Of a stretch of 64,000 nt of DNA, positions 19,406 to 53,977 are shown piece by piece. The translations under genes were made by a program, and so were the position numbers. The notes beneath the pieces were generated by a model. It was not told the DNA's origin and made no database searches. It worked only from the letters and a program-made list of their open reading frames with translations. Origin of the DNA: Anaeromicrobium sediminis (GTDB lineage Bacteria > Bacillota > Clostridia > Peptostreptococcales > Thermotaleaceae). The first letter of the stretch is position 1. Every line of letters starts with the position of its first letter. The stretch is taken from the NCBI RefSeq assembly GCF_002270055.1, contig NZ_NIBG01000002.1, forward strand, positions 310,001 to 374,000, written 5' to 3'.

Positions 19406-19459
19406 GAAATTGTGATAAGGACATAGAAAAAATTGTATAAAAAAATCGATTTCTGATTG

Positions 19460-19650
19460 ATGGGTGTGGGAGAGAACTAAAATTAGTCGCCGAAGGGACA
19501 AACAAACTATGTTATTGCCAACTGGTTTGTGAATTTTTCAGGCAAAAGGACCGTACTCTGACAGAACTCTGGAAAGCTTTTTAAATAAAAAGCACCGAAG
19601 GAGCAATCCCCTATGGGGAGAATCTCTCAGGTTTACGACAGAGAAGCGTG
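19460..19650 (+). ncRNA. Tandem glycine riboswitch
   Basis: Two glycine aptamers lie in series. The first (about 19465-19563) has GGGAGAG, GCCGAAGGG and the second-half core CAGGCAAAAGGACCG. The second (about 19565-19648) has CTCTGGAAAGC, GCACCGAAGGAGCAA and CTCAGGTTTACGACAGAG. The order and the conserved GCCGAAGG / CAGG-AAAAGGACC elements match the glycine riboswitch family. It controls grdX and the downstream glycine reductase genes, so transcription can be tied to glycine supply. Family precedent suggests an ON switch. Confidence 0.93.
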
Positions 19651-23507: not shown

Positions 23508-24818
23508 ATGAGCAAGCTTAGAGTTGTTCATTATATAAACCAATTCTTCGCAGGTATAGGTGGAGAAGAAAAGGCTGATTACAAACCAGAAGTTAGAGAA
23601 GGTTTTGTTGGGCCAGGAATGGCTATCAACAATTTAATGAAAGAAGAAGCTGAGATCGTTGCTACAATCATTTGTGGTGACTCATATTTCAACGAAAATG
23701 TAGAAGAGGCTAAGGCCGAAGTTATAAAAATGGTGAAGGATGCAAACCCTGACCTATTTGTAGCAGGACCAGCATTCAATGCAGGAAGATATGGTGTTGC
23801 GTGTGGTACTATTTGTAAAGCTGTACAAGAAGAATTAAACATTCCTGTAGTAACAGCTATGTACCCAGAAAACCCAGGTTCAGACATGTACAAGAAAGAC
23901 TTATACATATTAGAGACTGGAAACTCTGCTGCCGCAATGAGAAAAGCAGCACCTGCTTTAGCATCACTTGCACTTAAATTAGGTAGAGGAGAAGAAATTG
24001 GATCTCCTGAAGCTGAAGGATACATTAAAAGAGGTGTAAGAAAGAACATCTTTAGAGAAGAAAGAGGAGCTACAAGAGCAGTAAACATGCTTGTTAAAAA
24101 GTTAAAGGGTGAGGAATTCGAAACTGAATACCCAATGCCTACTTTTGATAATGTAGAGCCAGGAAAGGCAATTGTAGATTTATCTAAAGCAAAGATTGCT
24201 TTAGTAACATCTGGTGGTACAGTACCTAAGGGTAACCCAGATCGTATAGAATCTTCAAGTGCATCTAAGTATGGTAAATACGATATTGATGGAGTTATGG
24301 ATTTAACTGAAGAAACTTACGAAACTGCACATGGTGGATATGATCCAGTATATGCAAACGAAGATTCTGATAGAGTATTACCAGTAGACGTATTACGTGA
24401 CTTAGAAAAAGAAGGAGCTATCGGTGAATTACACAGATACTTCTATACTACAACTGGAAATGGTACTTCAGTTGGTAACTCTAAACAATTTGCTGCTGAA
24501 TTTGCAAAAGAATTAGTAGCAGATGGCGTAGATGCTGTTATCTTAACTTCTACGTGAGGTACTTGTACTCGTTGCGGTGCAACGATGGTTAAAGAGATTG
24601 AAAGAACTGGTATTCCAGTAGTTCATATCTGTACAGTAGTACCTATTTCATTAACAGTTGGAGCTAACAGAATAGTTCCAGCAATAGCTATCCCTCATCC
24701 ATTAGGAAACCCAGCATTAGATGCTGCAGATGAGAAGAAGCTAAGAAGAGAGATTGTTGAAAAATCTTTACATGCATTAACTGTTGAAGTAACAGATCAA
24801 ACTGTATTTGAAGATTAA
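23508..24818 (+). CDS. grdB: Glycine reductase component B, gamma subunit (selenoprotein, Sec350)
   Basis: GrdB is the substrate-specific selenoprotein subunit of protein B. The frame opens at ATG 23508 after GAGAGGGGGG and continues through TGA 24555-24557 at codon 350 without changing frame: ILTST-U-GTCTRCGATM. This gives the U-x-x-C-x-x-C motif and a total of 436 residues. N-terminal LRVVHYINQFFAGIGGEEKA and HRYFYTTTGNGTSVGN are typical. Without Sec decoding it would appear as two genes, 23508-24557 and 24585-24818. Confidence 0.97.
24555..24595 (+). promoter_or_regulatory. Candidate SECIS element of grdB
   Basis: The sequence just after the Sec codon, GGTACTTGTACTCGTTGCG then GTGCAACGATGG, can form a stem between CGTTGC and GCAACG directly 3' of the UGA, as expected for a bacterial SECIS. 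The pairing is visible; function is inferred from position. Confidence 0.6.
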
Positions 24819-46947: not shown

Positions 46948-47572
46948 GGGGGCGTACAGGTTTCGACGGGGGTCTGAATCTTATAGCAGCGAGTGGAGGT
47001 TTTTCCTTGGGGTCCGCCTTAAAAAACTGGGGATATAAATATAAACGCAAACGAAAATTACGCATTAGCAGCTTAATATAGTTGCTTGTTCACCCTAGAG
47101 ACCCACGATCTAGGCTTGAACATCATTTAAGTGGGGAACTACTTTTAGGGGTTGCCTTGACCTATTAGTTGATTAACTGGGGCTGGTAGAGATAAAAGCC
47201 TGTCATTGGGCGCTTTGATCTACGAGATTTAAAACAATGACTGCACTCGGAGAAACTATTTTTGCAGGGCTTTCGGACGTGGGTTCGATTCAAAAAGAGT
47301 CGCCCTATGAAGTGATTCATAGGTGAAAATCTGGCTTTATCGGTGAAGGCTAAGGTATAAAGATATGCTAAGCTAATACCGAGGGGTATGTGAAGAAATT
47401 CAACAGCTCCTTATCGACTCATAGGCTGCTAAGTCATTAGATAAGCAGTACTAGGATGGAAGATACAAACTAAACTAAGCTTCCATAACACGCCGGAGGA
47501 CTTCAATGAAGTTCATGATATAGTCAGTACTATAAGGAAACTTATGGAGCATATGTCCCACCGCCTCCACCA
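46948..47572 (+). ncRNA. ssrA: Transfer-messenger RNA gene, interrupted by a group I intron
   Basis: The 5' end GGGGGCGTACAGGTTTCGAC pairs with the 3' end CGCCTCCACCA to form the alanine-type acceptor stem. The tag frame is at 47047-47076 (GCA resume codon to TAA) and encodes ANENYALAA, a normal degradation tag. The T-arm is cut: GTGGGTTCGAT ends at 47289 and TCCCACCGCC resumes at 47556. Joining these gives a normal T-stem and loop and a mature RNA of about 359 nt, the usual size. It lies 20 bases after smpB and ends with encoded CCA at 47572. Confidence 0.96.
47290..47555 (+). other. Group I self-splicing intron in the tmRNA T-loop (266 nt)
   Basis: The 5' exon ends CGAT, and the intron segment GTCG (47299-47302) pairs with it to form P1 with the required U-G wobble at the splice site; GGG and CCC extend the helix. 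CTATGA (47305-47310) and TCATAG (47317-47322) form P2. P7 strands are GACT (47416-47419) and AGTC (47522-47525), the latter inside the classic S element GATATAGTC. The last intron base is G (47555) and the 3' exon starts T-CCCAC. There is no internal gene. Splicing is predicted from these features, not shown. Confidence 0.88.
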
Positions 47573-47635
47573 ATAAATACAACCGTATTGGATTATCCAA
47601 TACGGTTTTTTAGTGTTCAGAAATATAATTTATTT
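47564..47635 (+). repeat. Left copy of the 72-bp island-flanking repeat (attL-like), including the ssrA terminator
   Basis: It begins in the tmRNA acceptor stem (CCTCCACCA), includes the perfect terminator hairpin AACCGTATTGG/CCAATACGGTT with its T run (47581-47611), and ends in ATATAATTTATTT. The copy at 53906-53977 is identical at 66 of 72 positions with no gaps; all six differences are transitions and 31 consecutive bases are identical. This is the layout left by integration at a tmRNA 3' end. Confidence 0.9.
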
Positions 47636-47652: not shown

Positions 47653-47853
47653 TATTTTAATGCCTCATCTGAAGATCTCCCTTTTCTAGGAGTAAATGAT
47701 TCATATTTATTAAGAATTAATTGTGCCCTTTTCCTTTTAGATTCAATTACTAAATAAGGTTCTATATATTTTATAAATTTAATAGCATTTCTATATTTAG
47801 CTATATAGGTATATGAGTTTTTATGATTGTTAGGATTATAATTTTTTGTTACT
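47653..47853 (-). pseudogene. C-terminal remnant resembling an intron homing endonuclease
   Basis: On the minus strand, 66 codons are open down to a stop at 47653-47655. The peptide has YIAKYRNAIKFIKYIEPYLV, then ESKRKRAQLIL and a basic tail YESFTPRKGRSS. The pattern of a K-AI-FIK-I-PYL stretch followed by a K-R-Q-L/I-IL helix resembles the C-terminal part of LAGLIDADG-type homing endonucleases. There is no start or N-terminal part, so it is a fragment. Its place 80 bases from the split tmRNA is suggestive. Identification is from pattern only. Confidence 0.4.
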
Positions 47854-47924: not shown

Positions 47925-48215
47925 ACAAAACATGAGATACAAATATTACATACAGATAGGGGAAATGAATTTAGAAATAAGGCTATAGATAAACTATTAA
48001 GCACCTTTAAAATCCAGCGTTCACTGAGCAAAAATGGGTGTCCTTTTGATAATGCCTTATCAGAAGCTATATTTAAAGTAATAAAAACAGAATTTGTTTT
48101 CAATAGAATTTTTCACAGCTTTGAGCAATTGAAATATGAGGTATTTGACTATGTGAATTTGTATAATAAACACAAGTTACATGGGTCATTAGATTACCTA
48201 ACCCCTGTAGAATAA
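47925..48215 (+). pseudogene. IS3-family transposase (OrfB), C-terminal remnant
   Basis: A 96-codon frame with no start codon of its own context and a stop codon just upstream (47922-47924). It encodes the end of an rve/DDE integrase domain: ILHTDRGNEFRNKAIDKLL and GCPFDNALSEAIFKVIKTE, where the second aspartate and the glutamate are separated by exactly 35 residues as in IS3 transposases. FEQLKYEVFDYVNLYNKHKL and YLTPVE close it, normal for the family. The N-terminal part and OrfA are missing. TGTCCGATAAAAAAAGGGCCC downstream may be a remnant IS end. Confidence 0.85.
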
Positions 48216-48273: not shown

Positions 48274-48432
48274 TTAGTCAATAATAAGGCGTTGTAAAGC
48301 GTCTCGATTCATATCCTTACCACTAACTTGATCTTGATATAGTTCATCATATCCATATCCTTTTAATTGATTCAAATATCTTGACAAATTCTGAGAAGTT
48401 TAACTCGTCCTTGCGTAAGCTCTAATAGTCAT
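48274..48432 (-). pseudogene. Serine resolvase/invertase, N-terminal remnant with a stop codon
   Basis: Read on the minus strand from ATG 48432 (preceded by AAGGTGGGG), the peptide is TIRAYARTS-stop-TSQNLSRYLNQL, then GYGYDELYQDQVSGKDMNRD. It matches the resolvase catalytic N-terminus (YARVSTxxQ, ExVSGK). The stop codon replaces the residue after the nucleophilic serine (codon 11), and the frame ends at codon 53 against about 190 in active enzymes. A truncated, dead gene from an earlier mobile element. Confidence 0.8.
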
Positions 48433-48922: not shown

Positions 48923-49801
48923 ATGAATTTTGGATTGCATCAAACATTTTGTATGAGACAAGACTGGATTTATCAAGGTTTAAGAAATTTTAAAAAAAAC
49001 AATAAATTATTCTTAGAAAATAATACAACTATTATGGATGAAACAGGATTAGGACCAAATAGTGTTAAATCTATTAAATTTTGGATGGAATCAACAGGCC
49101 TGATGAAAGAAGAAAAACATAGAGGAGTTAGTTATCACAAACTTACTGATTTTGGTGATTTAATATGGTCGCACGATAGACTATTAGATGAATATGGAAC
49201 CCTATGGTTTATGCATTACAAGTTAACGGAAAATAGAGAGTTTGCTACAACATGGTATTGGTTTTTTAATAAATATAAAAAAACAATATTTTCAAAAGAT
49301 ATTTTTATTAAAGATTTGATACGGGATTTAAAGCTAAATGAGAGTAAATATACATTGCCTTTAAGAACATTAGAAGCTGAGTATTATTGCTTAGTTAAAA
49401 CATATGTATCTGAAAACAACAGAATAAGTGATAACTTTTATTGTTCTTTATCAAAGTTAAATTTATTAAGTTTTATTCAGGGTAGTAGAGGAAGATTGAA
49501 GAAAGAAAGTTTAAAAAAAGAGATTTTACATCCTTTGGTTTTTCTAGCTATTCTAATAGAAAAGTATATTGATGGAAGTGAATGTAAATATATTCGTAGA
49601 ATTGATTTGTCAAATCTGTCATACAATGTTAAAAATATTTTTAATATGGATAACCAAACAATAAACTACTATTTGGAATATCTAAAGGAATCAAATTATA
49701 TAAACATTAGACAAAAAGAAAGTCGAAAATTAATAGAGTTATCTCATAATATAGATTCTATGGATATTCTTAAAAAGTATTACAATCAAATCAATTTATA
49801 G
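48923..49801 (+). CDS. DUF4007 family protein
   Basis: A 292-residue soluble protein. The N-terminal half matches DUF4007: HQTFCMRQDWIYQGLRNF, TGLGPNSVKSIKFWMESTGL (about residues 40-59), GTLWFMHYKLTENREFATTW (about 96-115) and YWFFNKYKK. The C-terminal half is helical with no motif I know. Function is unproven. From memory, DUF4007 genes often neighbour PAPS-reductase-like genes in defence-type loci, as here. The ATG at 48923 follows GGGAAGGGAG; an in-frame ATG at 48899 precedes that site and is unlikely. Confidence 0.85.
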   Translation: MNFGLHQTFCMRQDWIYQGLRNFKKNNKLFLENNTTIMDETGLGPNSVKSIKFWMESTGLMKEEKHRGVSYHKLTDFGDLIWSHDRLLDEYGTLWFMHYKLTENREFATTWYWFFNKYKKTIFSKDIFIKDLIRDLKLNESKYTLPLRTLEAEYYCLVKTYVSENNRISDNFYCSLSKLNLLSFIQGSRGRLKKESLKKEILHPLVFLAILIEKYIDGSECKYIRRIDLSNLSYNVKNIFNMDNQTINYYLEYLKESNYINIRQKESRKLIELSHNIDSMDILKKYYNQINL

Positions 49802-49953
49802 ATGTTGGTAAACTTGCAGTTATTATAATGAATCTCTTAAAAAGTTACAAACGATAAAAAAGAAAAAATCTATATAAGGTCTCGTGTCTTTATTTACTTA
49901 AATAATAAGGTAGTAGTTTAAATTATAATAGCTAAGAGTAAGGGGGAGTACAA

Positions 49954-50703
49954 ATTGATAATTTAAAACTTTCTCAAGTAATAAAAAAAATTTTTGAAGA
50001 TAATGATCTTCCAGAAAACTTTTTCAAAGTTCATCCAAAGAATTGCTGGGGACCCGTAGAAATATATACCAACATTTACGAAATAACTTTTTCGTATAGC
50101 ACTATACGTGGCAATGAAAAGAGCAAAAAAATTATTATTTCTTGTTACTACAAAAACATACGCTCTCATTTTATATATCTCGTTAATTTATATAATTTAA
50201 TATTCCCTTATAGAAAATATATTAATCCTATAATAAAAGAGGTGAGAAATAAAGGAAGTATAATAACAATTGTTGATGAAAAATTCCTGAATAGATATTT
50301 AGAGTTTAGAAGTAGGACGAAAATAAAAAAAGACTCTTTTTTTTCGTTAAAAGAGAAACTGTGTAACTTATTTCAAAATGAGCTGCACTTAAGTAGGGAA
50401 CTAAATAAGTTAGTAGAAGAACATTATAAAAGTTTTTGGGGTCCATTATTCATTGCAACTGAACTTGCTACATTAGATATATATTACACAACTATGAGAG
50501 GGAATAAAAAACAAAGAACTATATATTTTACTTGTTGGACTTGGGAAAAGCTAAGATTTGGTTATTTAGATGATACAATACGTAGAGTAATTGAAAATCA
50601 TATAAAAAAACTTAATGATAGTACAGAAAATTTTTATAAAAAACATATAGACTTGAAGTGGAATTTAGGTAACTACAATAAAACATTAATAAGTTATATT
50701 TAG
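49954..50703 (+). CDS. Unrecognised protein with two copies of a WGP...RGN...C module; apparent AUU start
   Basis: An uninterrupted frame of 249 codons follows a strong AGGGGGAG (49941-49948), but the first codon at start distance is ATT 49954; the first standard start in frame is GTG 50242, which would delete the first 96 residues. Those residues are clearly coding, because they repeat the second half. NCWGPVEIYTN with STIRGNEKSKKIIISC (W32, R52, C64) matches FWGPLFIATEL with TTMRGNKKQRTIYFTC (W162, R182, C194), each exactly 130 residues apart. I recognise no family. Either AUU initiation or a recent loss of ATG would explain the start. A terminator follows. Confidence 0.75.
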   Translation: MDNLKLSQVIKKIFEDNDLPENFFKVHPKNCWGPVEIYTNIYEITFSYSTIRGNEKSKKIIISCYYKNIRSHFIYLVNLYNLIFPYRKYINPIIKEVRNKGSIITIVDEKFLNRYLEFRSRTKIKKDSFFSLKEKLCNLFQNELHLSRELNKLVEEHYKSFWGPLFIATELATLDIYYTTMRGNKKQRTIYFTCWTWEKLRFGYLDDTIRRVIENHIKKLNDSTENFYKKHIDLKWNLGNYNKTLISYI

Positions 50704-50722
50704 CAGTGTATAAGGGGGTGAC

Positions 50723-50743
50723 AAACATATTACGTATGTTTTT
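50723..50743 (+). terminator. Terminator after the two-module gene
   Basis: AAACATA and TATGTTT pair around TTACG, followed by TT. It lies 20 bases after the stop codon, separating this gene from the PAPS-reductase-like gene. Confidence 0.7.
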
Positions 50744-50906
50744 AATAAATTGCTAAATGTAGACATTCTTAGCAACTTTAATTATAAAATAAGGTATTAG
50801 AAAATCAATACACTCACTATATTTAATTATATTAATCCTTTTCATTACAATTTGAAAAAGGTTGGTACAGGGAAGCTAATGTATGCCCATCAACGCTGAC
50901 CGTTAT

Positions 50907-50939
50907 TTGAATCAAACTATAAAATTATCATTGATTCAA
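50907..50939 (+). promoter_or_regulatory. Perfect 9-bp inverted repeat in the leader of the PAPS-reductase-like gene
   Basis: TTGAATCAA (50907-50915) and TTGATTCAA (50931-50939) are exact complements 15 bases apart, 98 bases before the GTG start. It could be an operator or a leader RNA hairpin. The 315 bases from 50704 to 51018 hold no gene. Confidence 0.55.
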
Positions 50940-50995
50940 GGGTAGACTACCGTAAAATATTTCACCCAGATTTTTATATCTTAGAAAAATATTCT

Positions 50996-51028
50996 CCTCA
51001 ATCAGATGGCAAATAAATTTGATTGAGG
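50996..51028 (+). promoter_or_regulatory. Hairpin covering the ribosome binding site of the PAPS-reductase-like gene
   Basis: CCTCAATCA (50996-51004) is a perfect complement of TGATTGAGG (51020-51028). The second strand contains the Shine-Dalgarno GAGG used by the GTG start at 51037. Folding would hide the site, so translation probably depends on opening this stem. Confidence 0.65.
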
Positions 51029-51036
51029 TTAATATA

Positions 51037-52395
51037 GTGGGGAAGAGAAAATTTTCAGGCATAAGGCCTGTTTTTGAACAAGAAATAAAGTATCTTAAAG
51101 ATAAACTAGGGATAGAAATACCTTCAAATAAATGCTTTATGGAGCGATTGCAAATTAAGGCATTTACAGGCAAAGAGAAAACAAAAATTTTATATAAAAT
51201 AAAAGTTAATAGAGAAGAGATGAAGTTGGAAGTAAAAGAAAGTTGTAATTATGATGAAAGTAAGCTTTTAAATTGGGATGAAATTATTCAATTATATAGC
51301 GATAAACTATTAAATTTAGAGAAAGAAAGCATTAGTCTCATTACAAATAAGTTAAATCAATATTATGAACACCATCCACTAGTACTAACAAGTGGTGGTA
51401 AAGATAGTACTGTATTATTGCATCTAGTTCGCAGTGCAAACCCAAATATCAAAGCCATTTGTAATAACACTTCAAATGAGGCTGGAGAACACTATATACA
51501 TTTGAAAAAAATTCCTAATCTTGAATGGATTCATCCTAAAGTAGCATTTCTAAAGTATTGCGAACAAGAGAATTTTATACCATCAGTATTTGGCAGAAAT
51601 TGCTGTAGAGTATATAAGCATGAAACAACTATAGAAAAGTTAGAACAGGAGAAGAAGTATTTGTTTTTTATGGGTATGAGAAATGTAGAAGGACAAAAAA
51701 GAGCAGAATATATAGATGAACATAACGCAGATTACTATCCTGTAACATGGAAAGGTATATTACCAATACGAAAGTGGAATACACTAGATATATGGTTATA
51801 TATACTAGATAAAAAATTAGAATTTAGTCAGATATATATAAAAGGCTATAGTCGTTGTGGTTGCTTAATATGTCCTTATCGTACACTTTATGAAGATATC
51901 TTAACAAGAGAGTATTTCTTAAAGCGTATAAAAAGATTTGAAAAGATACAAGAAAATAACTTTAAAACCAAAAAACGTTGGATATATTTAAATTGTACTT
52001 TACAAGAATTTATAGATTATGGATGGAAAGGCAGAAGAGTGAGGGAAGAACCCACTCAAGAAGTTATAGAAGAGTTTGCAGATTATATGGGAATTAAAGA
52101 AGAGATTGCAAAGAAATATTTCAATCAAGTTTGTAACTGTCAAAGAAATAAAGAAAAACAATTATTTTTAAAGGATTTTGAAGTAGCTTTAAATCTTAAG
52201 TATTTGGGTAGAAAAACGAATAAGCTTTTATGTATAAACTGCCTAGCTGAATATCTTGCTCAATCAGAAATTGAAGATATTAAAAGAAGAAATAAAAGGC
52301 ATAAAACAAAAGTAAAAAATGCTATTGGGAATAAGAAAAAAGAACTAGAAAAGAATATAGAACAATTTAAAAGTCAAGGTTGTCAACTATTCTAG
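51037..52395 (+). CDS. PAPS-reductase-like PP-loop ATPase with extra cysteine clusters
   Basis: A 452-residue protein. Residues about 1-110 are unrecognised. The PAPS reductase/DndC-like domain follows, with the PP-loop SGGKDST at 119-125, FGRNCCRVYKH (C189-C190), GMRNVEGQKRAEY and YSRCGCLICPYRT (C274, C276, C279), a likely Fe-S or metal site. The C-terminal third adds CNC (366/368) and CINC (399/402), suggesting a zinc finger, and a basic coiled region. Enzymes of this group activate substrates with ATP for sulfur transfer, as in DNA phosphorothioation. GTG 51037 is favoured over TTG 51019 by TTGAGG spacing. Confidence 0.85.
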   Translation: MGKRKFSGIRPVFEQEIKYLKDKLGIEIPSNKCFMERLQIKAFTGKEKTKILYKIKVNREEMKLEVKESCNYDESKLLNWDEIIQLYSDKLLNLEKESISLITNKLNQYYEHHPLVLTSGGKDSTVLLHLVRSANPNIKAICNNTSNEAGEHYIHLKKIPNLEWIHPKVAFLKYCEQENFIPSVFGRNCCRVYKHETTIEKLEQEKKYLFFMGMRNVEGQKRAEYIDEHNADYYPVTWKGILPIRKWNTLDIWLYILDKKLEFSQIYIKGYSRCGCLICPYRTLYEDILTREYFLKRIKRFEKIQENNFKTKKRWIYLNCTLQEFIDYGWKGRRVREEPTQEVIEEFADYMGIKEEIAKKYFNQVCNCQRNKEKQLFLKDFEVALNLKYLGRKTNKLLCINCLAEYLAQSEIEDIKRRNKRHKTKVKNAIGNKKKELEKNIEQFKSQGCQLF

Positions 52396-52460
52396 CATGA
52401 ATTTAATTTAGAAGTTTAAATCTTAAAATAAGTACAATTCTAAAATTTATAGATAGAAAA

Positions 52461-52524
52461 TTATCAAAAACCGAGTAATTTATAGGCATATGCCAACAAG
52501 TTACTCGGTTTTTGTTTTTGATAA
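52461..52524. terminator. Long bidirectional-type terminator
   Basis: TTATCAAAAACCGAGTAA pairs with TTACTCGGTTTTTG and, after a few bases, TTTTTGATAA; the loop is about 22 bases. T runs are present on both strands. It ends the PAPS-reductase-like transcription unit. Confidence 0.85.
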
Positions 52525-52674
52525 TTTGAAAGATTTTATGGATTAATTATTTATCAAATATAAAAATCATTATTTTTACGAATATAAAAGTTAAACGAGA
52601 AAAAAATAATAATAAAATGTTCAATATATTTTCAACTAATGAAAAACTTTGAATTACAAAGGAGTAAACACAAA

Positions 52675-53844
52675 ATGAATAGTGAGCTAACATTAGAAAA
52701 ATATAAAAAAGCAATTTCTAGAAATCAAAATTCATATAAATTTGCTTTAGGGTTAGCACTTATACAAACAATTAATAATAATAGAAGAGTTTACTATGAA
52801 GAAATAATAAGAAAGGTAGCAGATATTTATTTTAAGCACCATTTTATATACAAGATTAATGAGTCGAATAACCCCAATCAGGTTCCTATAGTTATAACTA
52901 TATTAGAAGAATATTTAAAAAATGTATATGGGAACATTAGCAATATAAAAAAGCTGTCTAAAGAAGATTTAAATGCTTTGTCAGTATATTTGATTAACCC
53001 TAAAAAAATTACAAATATAATTAATAGCCCATTAGTTGCTACAAAATTAACAACCAATAAAGGTTTTTTCTATTATACATTACCATGCTGGCAAAAGGCA
53101 GAGAAAATAAAAGGAAAGAGTTATTATGATTATTCTAATAGTGGTGAGAATGATTTCTTTTTATATGATTCAAATAAAAAAGTATTACTAATAAAGGAAG
53201 ATTTCATAAATCTAATAAATACTAGAAAAGAATTGCTAACTGATATTACTGTAGGGCAATGGGTTAAATTTACAGAAAAATTCAACTTAATTCCAAGATT
53301 ATATCAAAAAATTAGTCTTGATAAACCTAATAGAACTACAAGTAAGTTTAATGATATATTTGATAATTTAGCAGTGTTAGAAGGAGATGCATGTATCATT
53401 TGTAACAAGAAAATATATAAAGATAAGACTTTAGACCATTTAATTCCTTTTTCATATATTTTTTCTTGTGAATTATGGAATCTAGCAAGAGCACATAGAA
53501 CATGTAATAGTAGTAAAAATGATAAAATTGGTAGTCAAGAAATGATTGATAAATTGGTAAGAAGAAATATAAGATTATGGAAATTAGAGGACGAAATTCC
53601 TAGTAAGTATAAAAACATTTATTTGAATCATTTTAAGAGTAATTTTATATCAATTAATGATATGGTGCAAAAAATTTATAAGGCAGTATTAGAATGTAAA
53701 AGCGCAGGATTCGAACAGATGAAAGATAGAGAAAGCAAAAGACAAAAGCATGAAGTGGAAGATATTAATATCATATCAAGTATACCTGATTTTACAGAAG
53801 TATTTACTAATGGAAGTTTGGATAATAATAAAATAATTTATTAA
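52675..53844 (+). CDS. HNH endonuclease domain protein
   Basis: A 389-residue protein. The first 230 residues are mostly helical and unrecognised (KYKKAISRNQNSYKFALGLA near the start). The C-terminal part holds a complete HNH nuclease: CIICNKKI (C240, C243), KTLDHLIPFSY with H255, ELWNLARAHRTCNSSKND with N at about 269, H274 and C277. The two CxxC-type pairs would bind structural zinc. It could cut modified or unmodified DNA, or tRNA; the target is unknown. AAAGGAGTAA supports ATG 52675 over ATG 52639. It is the last gene of the island. Confidence 0.82.
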   Translation: MNSELTLEKYKKAISRNQNSYKFALGLALIQTINNNRRVYYEEIIRKVADIYFKHHFIYKINESNNPNQVPIVITILEEYLKNVYGNISNIKKLSKEDLNALSVYLINPKKITNIINSPLVATKLTTNKGFFYYTLPCWQKAEKIKGKSYYDYSNSGENDFFLYDSNKKVLLIKEDFINLINTRKELLTDITVGQWVKFTEKFNLIPRLYQKISLDKPNRTTSKFNDIFDNLAVLEGDACIICNKKIYKDKTLDHLIPFSYIFSCELWNLARAHRTCNSSKNDKIGSQEMIDKLVRRNIRLWKLEDEIPSKYKNIYLNHFKSNFISINDMVQKIYKAVLECKSAGFEQMKDRESKRQKHEVEDINIISSIPDFTEVFTNGSLDNNKIIY

Positions 53845-53905
53845 ACTATTAAACCTTTCATATAGTTTAATTTTAGAAATTGTGGTTTCGATACAATACG
53901 CTCCA

Positions 53906-53977
53906 CCTCCGCCAATAAATATAACCGTATTGGATTATCCAATACGGTTTTTTGATGTTTAAAAATATAATTTATTT
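53906..53977 (+). repeat. Right copy of the 72-bp island-flanking repeat (attR-like), with a duplicate ssrA terminator
   Basis: It matches 47564-47635 at 66 of 72 positions and includes the same terminator hairpin (53923-53953). Upstream, TGTGGTTTCGAT (53881-53892) resembles the tmRNA T-arm GTGGGTTCGAT, but here it is not followed by intron sequence; ACAATACGCTCCA then leads to CCTCCGCCA. This is either a worn, displaced tmRNA 3' end or a partial imitation carried by the island. The terminator could also serve the HNH gene. Confidence 0.85.

What the first reader, a model, noticed from the sequence alone, without database searches (positions are those of the whole stretch)
48923..53844. Candidate undescribed sulfur-linked defence or modification system: DUF4007, two-module protein, PAPS-reductase-like enzyme, HNH nuclease
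Four maintained genes fill an otherwise decayed island. A PP-loop enzyme with PAPS-reductase motifs plus three cysteine clusters could transfer sulfur, as DndC/SspD do in DNA phosphorothioation; the HNH protein is a candidate effector; DUF4007 is a recurrent partner. The usual Dnd/Ssp genes (DndB, DndD, DndE, cysteine desulfurase) and BREX genes (pglZ, brxC) are absent, and the two-module protein matches nothing I know. This is the best candidate in the window for a new compact system.
Basis: inference. Interest (0 to 1): 0.82.

Follow-up and report, generated by a model that had tools for sequence, protein, structure and literature searches.

The report
Mosaic island with phage sulfur-enzyme cassette
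The four genes are not one new defence system: they are a patchwork in a small mobile island, of an orphaned DNA-nicking protein, a nuclease that travels with defence systems, and a phage-type pair of genes separated by a previously unlabelled, apparently structured RNA that probably controls the second gene.

Summary
The four ORFs are real. They fill a 6.3-kb island bounded by a 75-bp, 91%-identical copy of the tmRNA 3' end. The reading as one undescribed compact system is not supported. (1) DUF4007 is SspB, the nickase of SspABCD phosphorothioation. It nests among SspBs of complete cassettes, but its partner ATPase SspC is absent from island and genome, whereas every other full-length DUF4007 gene fetched from the order and phylum samples has it. 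(2) The PAPS protein is not SspD (AU p=0.005). It belongs to a family of 450-473 aa PP-loop proteins of large phages and a clostridial plasmid (clade support 99/97). (3) The 'two-module' protein is a tandem duplication of a small protein encoded just upstream of that enzyme in four of these loci. (4) The HNH protein, behind a strong terminator, belongs to a family found beside Ssp and BREX loci, but 0 of 41 DUF4007 genomes in the phylum carry it near DUF4007. Unexpectedly, the gap between small protein and PP-loop gene holds a conserved structured RNA (no Rfam match) ending in a hairpin that would cover the ribosome-binding site. A pattern scan of 2.9 million viral contigs for this RNA alone recovered one new locus, with the same two gene families around it.

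The parts
46956..47572 (+). tmRNA gene (ssrA), integration site of the island; its T-loop is split by an insert of about 250 nt, consistent with the known tmRNA group I introns
   Evidence: Rfam tmRNA 46956-47292, 126 bits; 3' exon TCCCACCGCCTCCACCA read directly near 47556-47572; intron class described in PMC11915505
47561..47635 (+). left boundary: tmRNA 3' end plus terminator (att-like repeat, copy 1)
   Evidence: 75-nt direct repeat, 91% identity, spacing 6342; only two copies in the window
47925..48215 (+). IS3-type transposase remnant (integrase core, C-terminal part)
   Evidence: Pfam rve_2 4e-13, rve_3 5e-11
48277..48399 (-). serine resolvase N-terminal fragment (weak match)
   Evidence: Pfam Resolvase E 0.003, below the curated cut-off
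48923..49801 (+). SspB (DUF4007), diverged orphan
   Evidence: Pfam PF13182 4e-53, PADLOC SspB 2e-40, PDB 6juf SspB 2e-8; nested among SspB of D-B-C-A cassettes, end branch 1.9 against 0.23-0.34 in its sisters
49954..50703 (+). ORF2: tandem duplication of the small protein that precedes the phage-type PP-loop gene; no standard start codon, ATT 49954 after GGGGGAG
   Evidence: halves match each other 2e-10; HMM of four phage/plasmid small proteins hits this frame only, E 4e-8 in six frames of 64 kb, both modules
50835..50970 (+). leader-RNA core, diverged copy: stem P1, AGGTTG-G-TACAG, stem P3 around CGTAAAA
   Evidence: motif found at only five distinct places in 3.7 Mb of held sequence, all upstream of PP-loop genes; stems pair; covariance model R1 does not detect this copy
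50996..51028 (+). terminal hairpin CCTCAATCA..TGATTGAGG covering the GAGG ribosome-binding site of the PP-loop gene
   Evidence: 9 of 9 pairs; equivalent hairpins before the start codon in L292, L293, L302 and less perfectly in L296
51037..52395 (+). phage-type PP-loop (PAPS reductase-like) enzyme with C-terminal CxC..CxxC..GCxLF; frame open from 50956, TTG at 51019
   Evidence: full-length match to L276 2e-57; clade with phage proteins 99/97; AU test rejects placement in SspD, p 0.005
52458..52526 (+). strong intrinsic-terminator-like hairpin between the PP-loop and HNH genes
   Evidence: -28.2 kcal/mol, z -7.6 against shuffles
52675..53844 (+). HNH nuclease of a family found beside Ssp and BREX loci; frame open from 52588, other ATG at 52639
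   Evidence: HNH motifs intact (C252, D266 H267, N281, N290); relatives beside ssp genes in L036/L159, L041 and L283 and beside BREX in L040
53903..53977 (+). right boundary: displaced copy of the tmRNA 3' end and terminator (att-like repeat, copy 2)

Best explanation
The locus is a mosaic, partly decayed island inserted at the tmRNA 3' end, carrying separate fragments of the phage-bacterium conflict and not one system. Part A is an orphan, fast-diverging SspB nickase that has lost its SspC ATPase and SspD/SspA partners, so it cannot make phosphorothioate on its own by the known route. Part B is a phage-type cassette: a small protein (here tandemly duplicated), then a structured leader RNA, then a PP-loop enzyme. 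Shown: the cassette recurs, the RNA stems covary, and a hairpin covers the ribosome-binding site of the enzyme gene. Inferred: the leader sets how much enzyme is translated, the small protein (predicted beta-beta-alpha-beta fold) is its regulator or the enzyme's partner, and the enzyme uses ATP to activate a substrate for sulfur transfer or a similar change. Part C is an HNH nuclease, separately transcribed, of a family that accompanies Ssp and BREX loci as an auxiliary nuclease.
For: Island boundaries: 75-bp repeat of the tmRNA 3' end, 6.3 kb apart. SspB identity. SspC present beside every other full-length DUF4007 gene fetched in the order and phylum samples; the two loci without it (L099, L105) have truncated SspB. 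No SspC/SspA remnant in the island, no SspC found in the genome. PP-loop protein in the phage clade, further members. Small protein upstream of the PP-loop gene in L284, L286, L292, L298 and L302. RNA: model built from L296, L292 and L302 finds L293, not used in the model, at 1.4e-6; a pattern scan of viral contigs with the RNA alone returned two places, the known L296 contig and the new L302, which encodes both gene families; compensatory changes in P1 (CG/GC/TA) and P3 (AT/GC/TA, AT/GC, CG/TA). Terminator before HNH. HNH association.
Against: All four frames are intact, which a pure relic need not be. SspB and an HNH of an Ssp-associated family on one island beside a sulfur-type enzyme is a suggestive combination. 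The window copy of the RNA is not detected by the covariance model and rests on motifs and stems alone. The own-genome SspC search had no positive control in the same run. The RBS hairpin of L296 pairs poorly in the version tested (7 of 15).
Confidence: 0.75

Rival explanations
1. A reduced but working Ssp-type system: SspB nicks, the phage-type PP-loop enzyme replaces SspD, a housekeeping IscS replaces SspA, and the HNH protein is the effector; the missing SspC is dispensable or replaced.
For: Frames intact; SspB keeps 15 of 22 near-invariant columns; the HNH family sits beside ssp genes in three other phyla; IscS can replace SspA (PMC8092258).
Against: SspC beside every other full-length DUF4007 gene fetched; PP-loop enzyme from another clade without the ferredoxin-like cysteines of SspD; gaps of 140-315 nt and a terminator between genes; no second occurrence found.
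Confidence: 0.12
2. A plain decayed SspABCD locus: SspB, the PAPS protein and HNH descend together from one ssp locus that lost SspC and SspA.
For: SspB is nested among SspBs of the same bacterial family and order; the HNH family accompanies ssp loci; island with IS debris.
Against: The PAPS protein is not SspD (AU p 0.005) and has its own phage-type neighbour and leader RNA; gene order differs from D-B-C-A and B-C-D.
Confidence: 0.08
3. A novel compact four-gene sulfur-linked defence system.
For: Four intact genes in one small island; families linked to sulfur chemistry and defence.
Against: No co-occurrence found in 297 order genomes, the 398-genome phylum sample, plasmids, phages or related loci; separate transcription units; each part better explained by other neighbours.
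Confidence: 0.04

Closest known systems
SspABCD (single-strand DNA phosphorothioation) with SspE or SspFGH
   Same: SspB/DUF4007 is a true member, nested among SspBs of complete cassettes.
   Different: No SspC ATPase, no SspA, PAPS enzyme not SspD, other gene order, separate transcription units.
[quoted passage not shown]
   Same: Both domain types side by side; best PADLOC match of the PAPS protein is BrxP (4.5e-29).
   Different: Not fused; no pglZ, brxC or brxL; PAPS protein outside the BrxP clade, which has 100/100 support.
Phage PAPS reductase-like proteins (PHROG 424)
   Same: Window enzyme and its nearest relatives match it.
   Different: PHROG 424 also matches SspD, BrxP and archaeal enzymes, so it is a superfamily; the 450-473 aa subfamily with C-terminal CxC..CxxC..C-LF, small partner and leader RNA has no label of its own there.
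Translation-controlling leader RNAs (riboswitches, protein-bound leaders)
   Same: Conserved stems with compensatory changes and a hairpin covering the ribosome-binding site.
   Different: No Rfam match; ligand or binding protein unknown; lies between two genes of one cassette.

Membership tests
SspABCD | SspB (DUF4007) nickase | tested here: met
   Pfam 4e-53, PADLOC SspB 2e-40, tree position
SspABCD | SspC ORC/Cdc6-type ATPase | tested here: not met
   no match in six frames of the island; none in the genome (no positive control in that run)
SspABCD | SspD-clade PAPS enzyme | tested here: not met
   AU test rejects, p 0.005; 47 of 104 SspD-conserved columns kept, ferredoxin-like cysteines largely lost
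SspABCD | SspA cysteine desulfurase (may be replaced by IscS) | tested here: inconclusive
   none in the island; a housekeeping desulfurase could substitute
SspABCD | phosphorothioate in DNA | not testable with these tools
   needs mass spectrometry
Type 4 BREX | PglZ and BrxC with BrxP | tested here: not met
   no such genes among the ORFs of the island; PAPS protein outside the BrxP clade
Assimilatory PAPS/APS reductase (CysH) | scores above CysH model cut-offs | tested here: not met
   36-46 bits against cut-offs of 154-165
Phage-type PP-loop cassette (small protein, leader RNA, enzyme) | enzyme in the phage clade with C-terminal CxC..CxxC..GCxLF | tested here: met
Phage-type PP-loop cassette (small protein, leader RNA, enzyme) | small-protein module immediately upstream | tested here: met
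   ORF2, HMM E 4e-8, duplicated module
Phage-type PP-loop cassette (small protein, leader RNA, enzyme) | leader RNA in the gap | tested here: inconclusive
   motif, P1, P3 and RBS hairpin present; covariance model does not detect the window copy

The most novel reading that the evidence does not exclude
The small protein, leader RNA and PP-loop enzyme form an undescribed self-regulated phage module (RNA-sensing or protein-bound leader controlling a nucleic-acid sulfurating or otherwise modifying enzyme), and in this island it has been combined with an SspB nickase and an HNH nuclease into a phosphorothioation-like defence that works without SspC.
Probability: 0.08. Interest if true: 0.8.

Novelty: new variant of a known kind. 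Interest (0 to 1): 0.45.

Why it matters
The four-gene 'system' is probably an accident of an integration hotspot, and saying so spares effort. What the follow-up uncovered is testable: a recurrent phage/plasmid cassette in which a conserved structured RNA without an Rfam entry precedes a PP-loop enzyme and follows a small protein family without a Pfam entry. Phage PAPS reductase-like genes are usually listed as auxiliary metabolic genes; a dedicated partner and an RNA switch would point to a regulated and specific chemistry. The locus also separates the HNH family that travels with Ssp and BREX loci as a candidate auxiliary nuclease.

Tried and rejected
ORF2 as an orphan: protein searches of order genomes, plasmids, genome contigs and viral contigs found nothing; only neighbour comparison beside the phage PP-loop genes solved it. 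ORF2 as an SspC remnant: no match. PAPS protein as SspD, BrxP or CysH: rejected. Single-sequence fold of ORF2: pLDDT 35, useless. Fold of the small protein from five sequences: beta-beta-alpha-beta core with pLDDT above 90, but the best PDB match is E 0.14 (ribosomal protein eL20 type), a lead only. DUF4007 in viral contigs: nothing. MAFFT alignment of whole leaders was poor, so helices were compared by hand. Weak covariance-model hits in other genomes (E 0.03 and worse) had no cassette genes in the stretches fetched (L305-L307) and were set aside.

Full report
What is there. The window contains smpB, then a tmRNA gene (46956-47292 plus a 3' exon ending near 47572), then a 6.3-kb stretch bounded by two copies of the tmRNA 3' end and terminator (47561-47635 and 53903-53977, 91% identical over 75 nt; no further copy in the window). 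This is the usual signature of an island integrated at ssrA. Inside are an IS3 transposase remnant and a weak resolvase fragment, and the four genes of the finding. Details corrected from the sequence: the PP-loop gene probably starts at GTG 51037 behind GAGG, the HNH gene at ATG 52675 behind AGGAG, and ORF2 has no ATG, GTG or TTG before residue ~100 of its frame, only an ATT behind GGGGGAG.

Gene 1 is SspB. DUF4007 matches Pfam at 4e-53, PADLOC SspB at 2e-40 and the solved SspB 6juf at 2e-8. In a tree of 41 DUF4007 proteins it nests with SspBs of cassettes from the same family and order, on an end branch of 1.9 against 0.23-0.34 in its sisters; it keeps 15 of 22 near-invariant columns. In those relatives SspB sits in a tight operon SspD-SspB-SspC-SspA or SspB-SspC-SspD. 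Across the stretches fetched around DUF4007 genes in the order and phylum samples (12 of 297 and 31 of 398 genomes with a match, the window's genome counted in both), every full-length DUF4007 gene except the window's has SspC; the two loci without it have truncated SspB (L099, L105). The island holds no SspC or SspA remnant, and an SspC profile found nothing in the genome (no positive control in that run). SspB nicking is essential for phosphorothioation but works with SspC and SspD (PMC8092258; PMC12707154).

Gene 3 is a phage-type PP-loop enzyme. It matches the PAPS_reduct domain, scores best in PADLOC on BrxP, and is far below the CysH cut-offs. Broad scans found only relatives of about 25-33% identity. 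The nearest are proteins of large viral contigs: L276, L277/L285/L295 (166-kb contig), L284/L293 (103 kb), L286/L296 (196 kb), L294, L297, L298, and one on a clostridial contig with a replication-initiator gene (G196, L292). They align over the full length (blastp 2e-57), share NTSN/NTTN, RNCCxxYK, RxGCLxCP and a C-terminal CxC..LCxxC..C-LF, and form a clade with the window protein (99/97); placing the window protein in SspD is rejected (p 0.005). Of the columns conserved in SspD it keeps 47 of 104 and lacks most of the ferredoxin-like cysteines.

Gene 2 belongs to gene 3. Database searches had found no relative. The neighbours of the phage enzymes did: a protein of 100-128 residues lies just upstream of the PP-loop gene in L284, L286, L292 and L298. 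An HMM of these four hits one frame in the 64-kb window, ORF2, at 4e-8, with both halves matching, and no decoy above chance among the held loci. ORF2 is a tandem duplication of this module. Not all members have it: none was seen upstream in L294, L295, L297, L299 or L300.

A leader RNA lies between them. The gap between small protein and enzyme is 229-315 nt in L293, L296, L292 and the window, and the gaps share a pattern: stem P1 (CCTC/GAGG, CCTG/CAGG, CCTT/AAGG), AGGTTG-TATAG, stem P2 with a TAG[CT]CA-like loop in the non-window copies, stem P3 (AGGC/GCCT, TGGT/ACCA, GAGT/ACTC, GGGT/ACCC) around TAAAA-CGTAAAA, and a last hairpin that covers the ribosome-binding site. Several P1 and P3 positions show changes on both sides, although in single sequences a P3-like stem is not rare by chance (2-22% of shuffles). 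Two tests used data not fitted: a covariance model from L296, L292 and L302 detects L293 at 1.4e-6 in 628 kb, and a pattern scan of viral contigs with the RNA alone returned two places, the known L296 contig and a new one, L302. L302 encodes the small protein (73 bits on an HMM built without it) before the RNA and a different PAPS-domain enzyme (373 aa) after it. No Rfam family matches. The window copy has the motifs, P1, P3 and a perfect 9-bp RBS hairpin, but longer inserts, and the model does not detect it; its assignment rests on the motif, which occurs at five distinct places in 3.7 Mb of held sequence, all in such gaps. The motif was widened to admit the window copy, so that count is not independent evidence for it.

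Gene 4 is an HNH nuclease of a defence-associated family. Its HNH residues are intact. Relatives lie beside complete ssp genes in Treponema (L036, L159), beside ssp genes in Hymenobacter (L041), on the same plasmid as DUF4007, SspC and a cysteine desulfurase in Leptolyngbya (L283), beside BREX genes in Acinetobacter (L040), and elsewhere without either. Only 41 of 72,556 plasmid records match the window SspB, so three of 19 HNH-bearing records is far above chance. In the window's own phylum the link is absent: none of 41 other DUF4007 genomes has a relative near DUF4007. A hairpin with z -7.6 followed by T-rich sequence lies between the PP-loop and HNH genes.

How it most likely works. Shown by computation: island boundaries, family assignments, absence of SspC from the island, recurrence of the small protein/RNA/PP-loop cassette, covarying stems. 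Inferred: the leader controls translation of the enzyme; the small protein binds the leader or the enzyme (its predicted fold resembles RNA-binding eL20 only weakly); the enzyme activates its substrate with ATP, as PP-loop enzymes do; SspB is an orphan on its way out or reused; HNH is an independent auxiliary nuclease.

Novelty. DUF4007/SspB and HNH are known kinds. The phage PP-loop subfamily with a dedicated small partner and an RNA leader is, as far as the libraries and one paper search (no paper) show, not described; it is a new variant of known kinds (phage PAPS-like gene, cis-regulatory RNA).

Noticed in passing
window 46956-47572: The tmRNA gene is split in its T-loop by an insert of about 250 nt ending in G before TCCCACC, fitting the known tmRNA group I introns (PMC11915505); ARAGORN misses the gene and Rfam gives no intron match.
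   Followed up: partly
L278 (MT835493) and L081 (MT835506): Two 'Bacteriophage sp.' scaffolds from human faeces carry complete SspD-SspB-SspC-SspA cassettes; either phage-borne ssp systems or misassigned bacterial scaffolds.
   Followed up: partly
L036/L159, L041, L283, L040: The HNH family of the island recurs beside ssp loci in Spirochaetota, Bacteroidota and Cyanobacteriota and beside BREX in Acinetobacter, suggesting an unnamed accessory nuclease.
   Followed up: partly
L302 1-3054: The same small protein and leader RNA precede a different, shorter PAPS-domain enzyme (373 aa, SGGLDST), so the leader and partner are not tied to one enzyme subfamily.
   Followed up: partly
window 47655-47852 minus strand: A 66-residue open frame just after the tmRNA 3' end (IEPYLVIESKRKRAQLILNKYESFTPRKGR) looks like a gene fragment of unknown origin.
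   Followed up: no
window 24558-24595 and 19457-19563: SECIS_4 element and glycine riboswitch matches above Rfam cut-offs, outside the island.
   Followed up: no
L099 (G376) and L105 (G350): Two other ssp loci in the phylum without SspC both have truncated SspB, examples of decay of the system.
   Followed up: no
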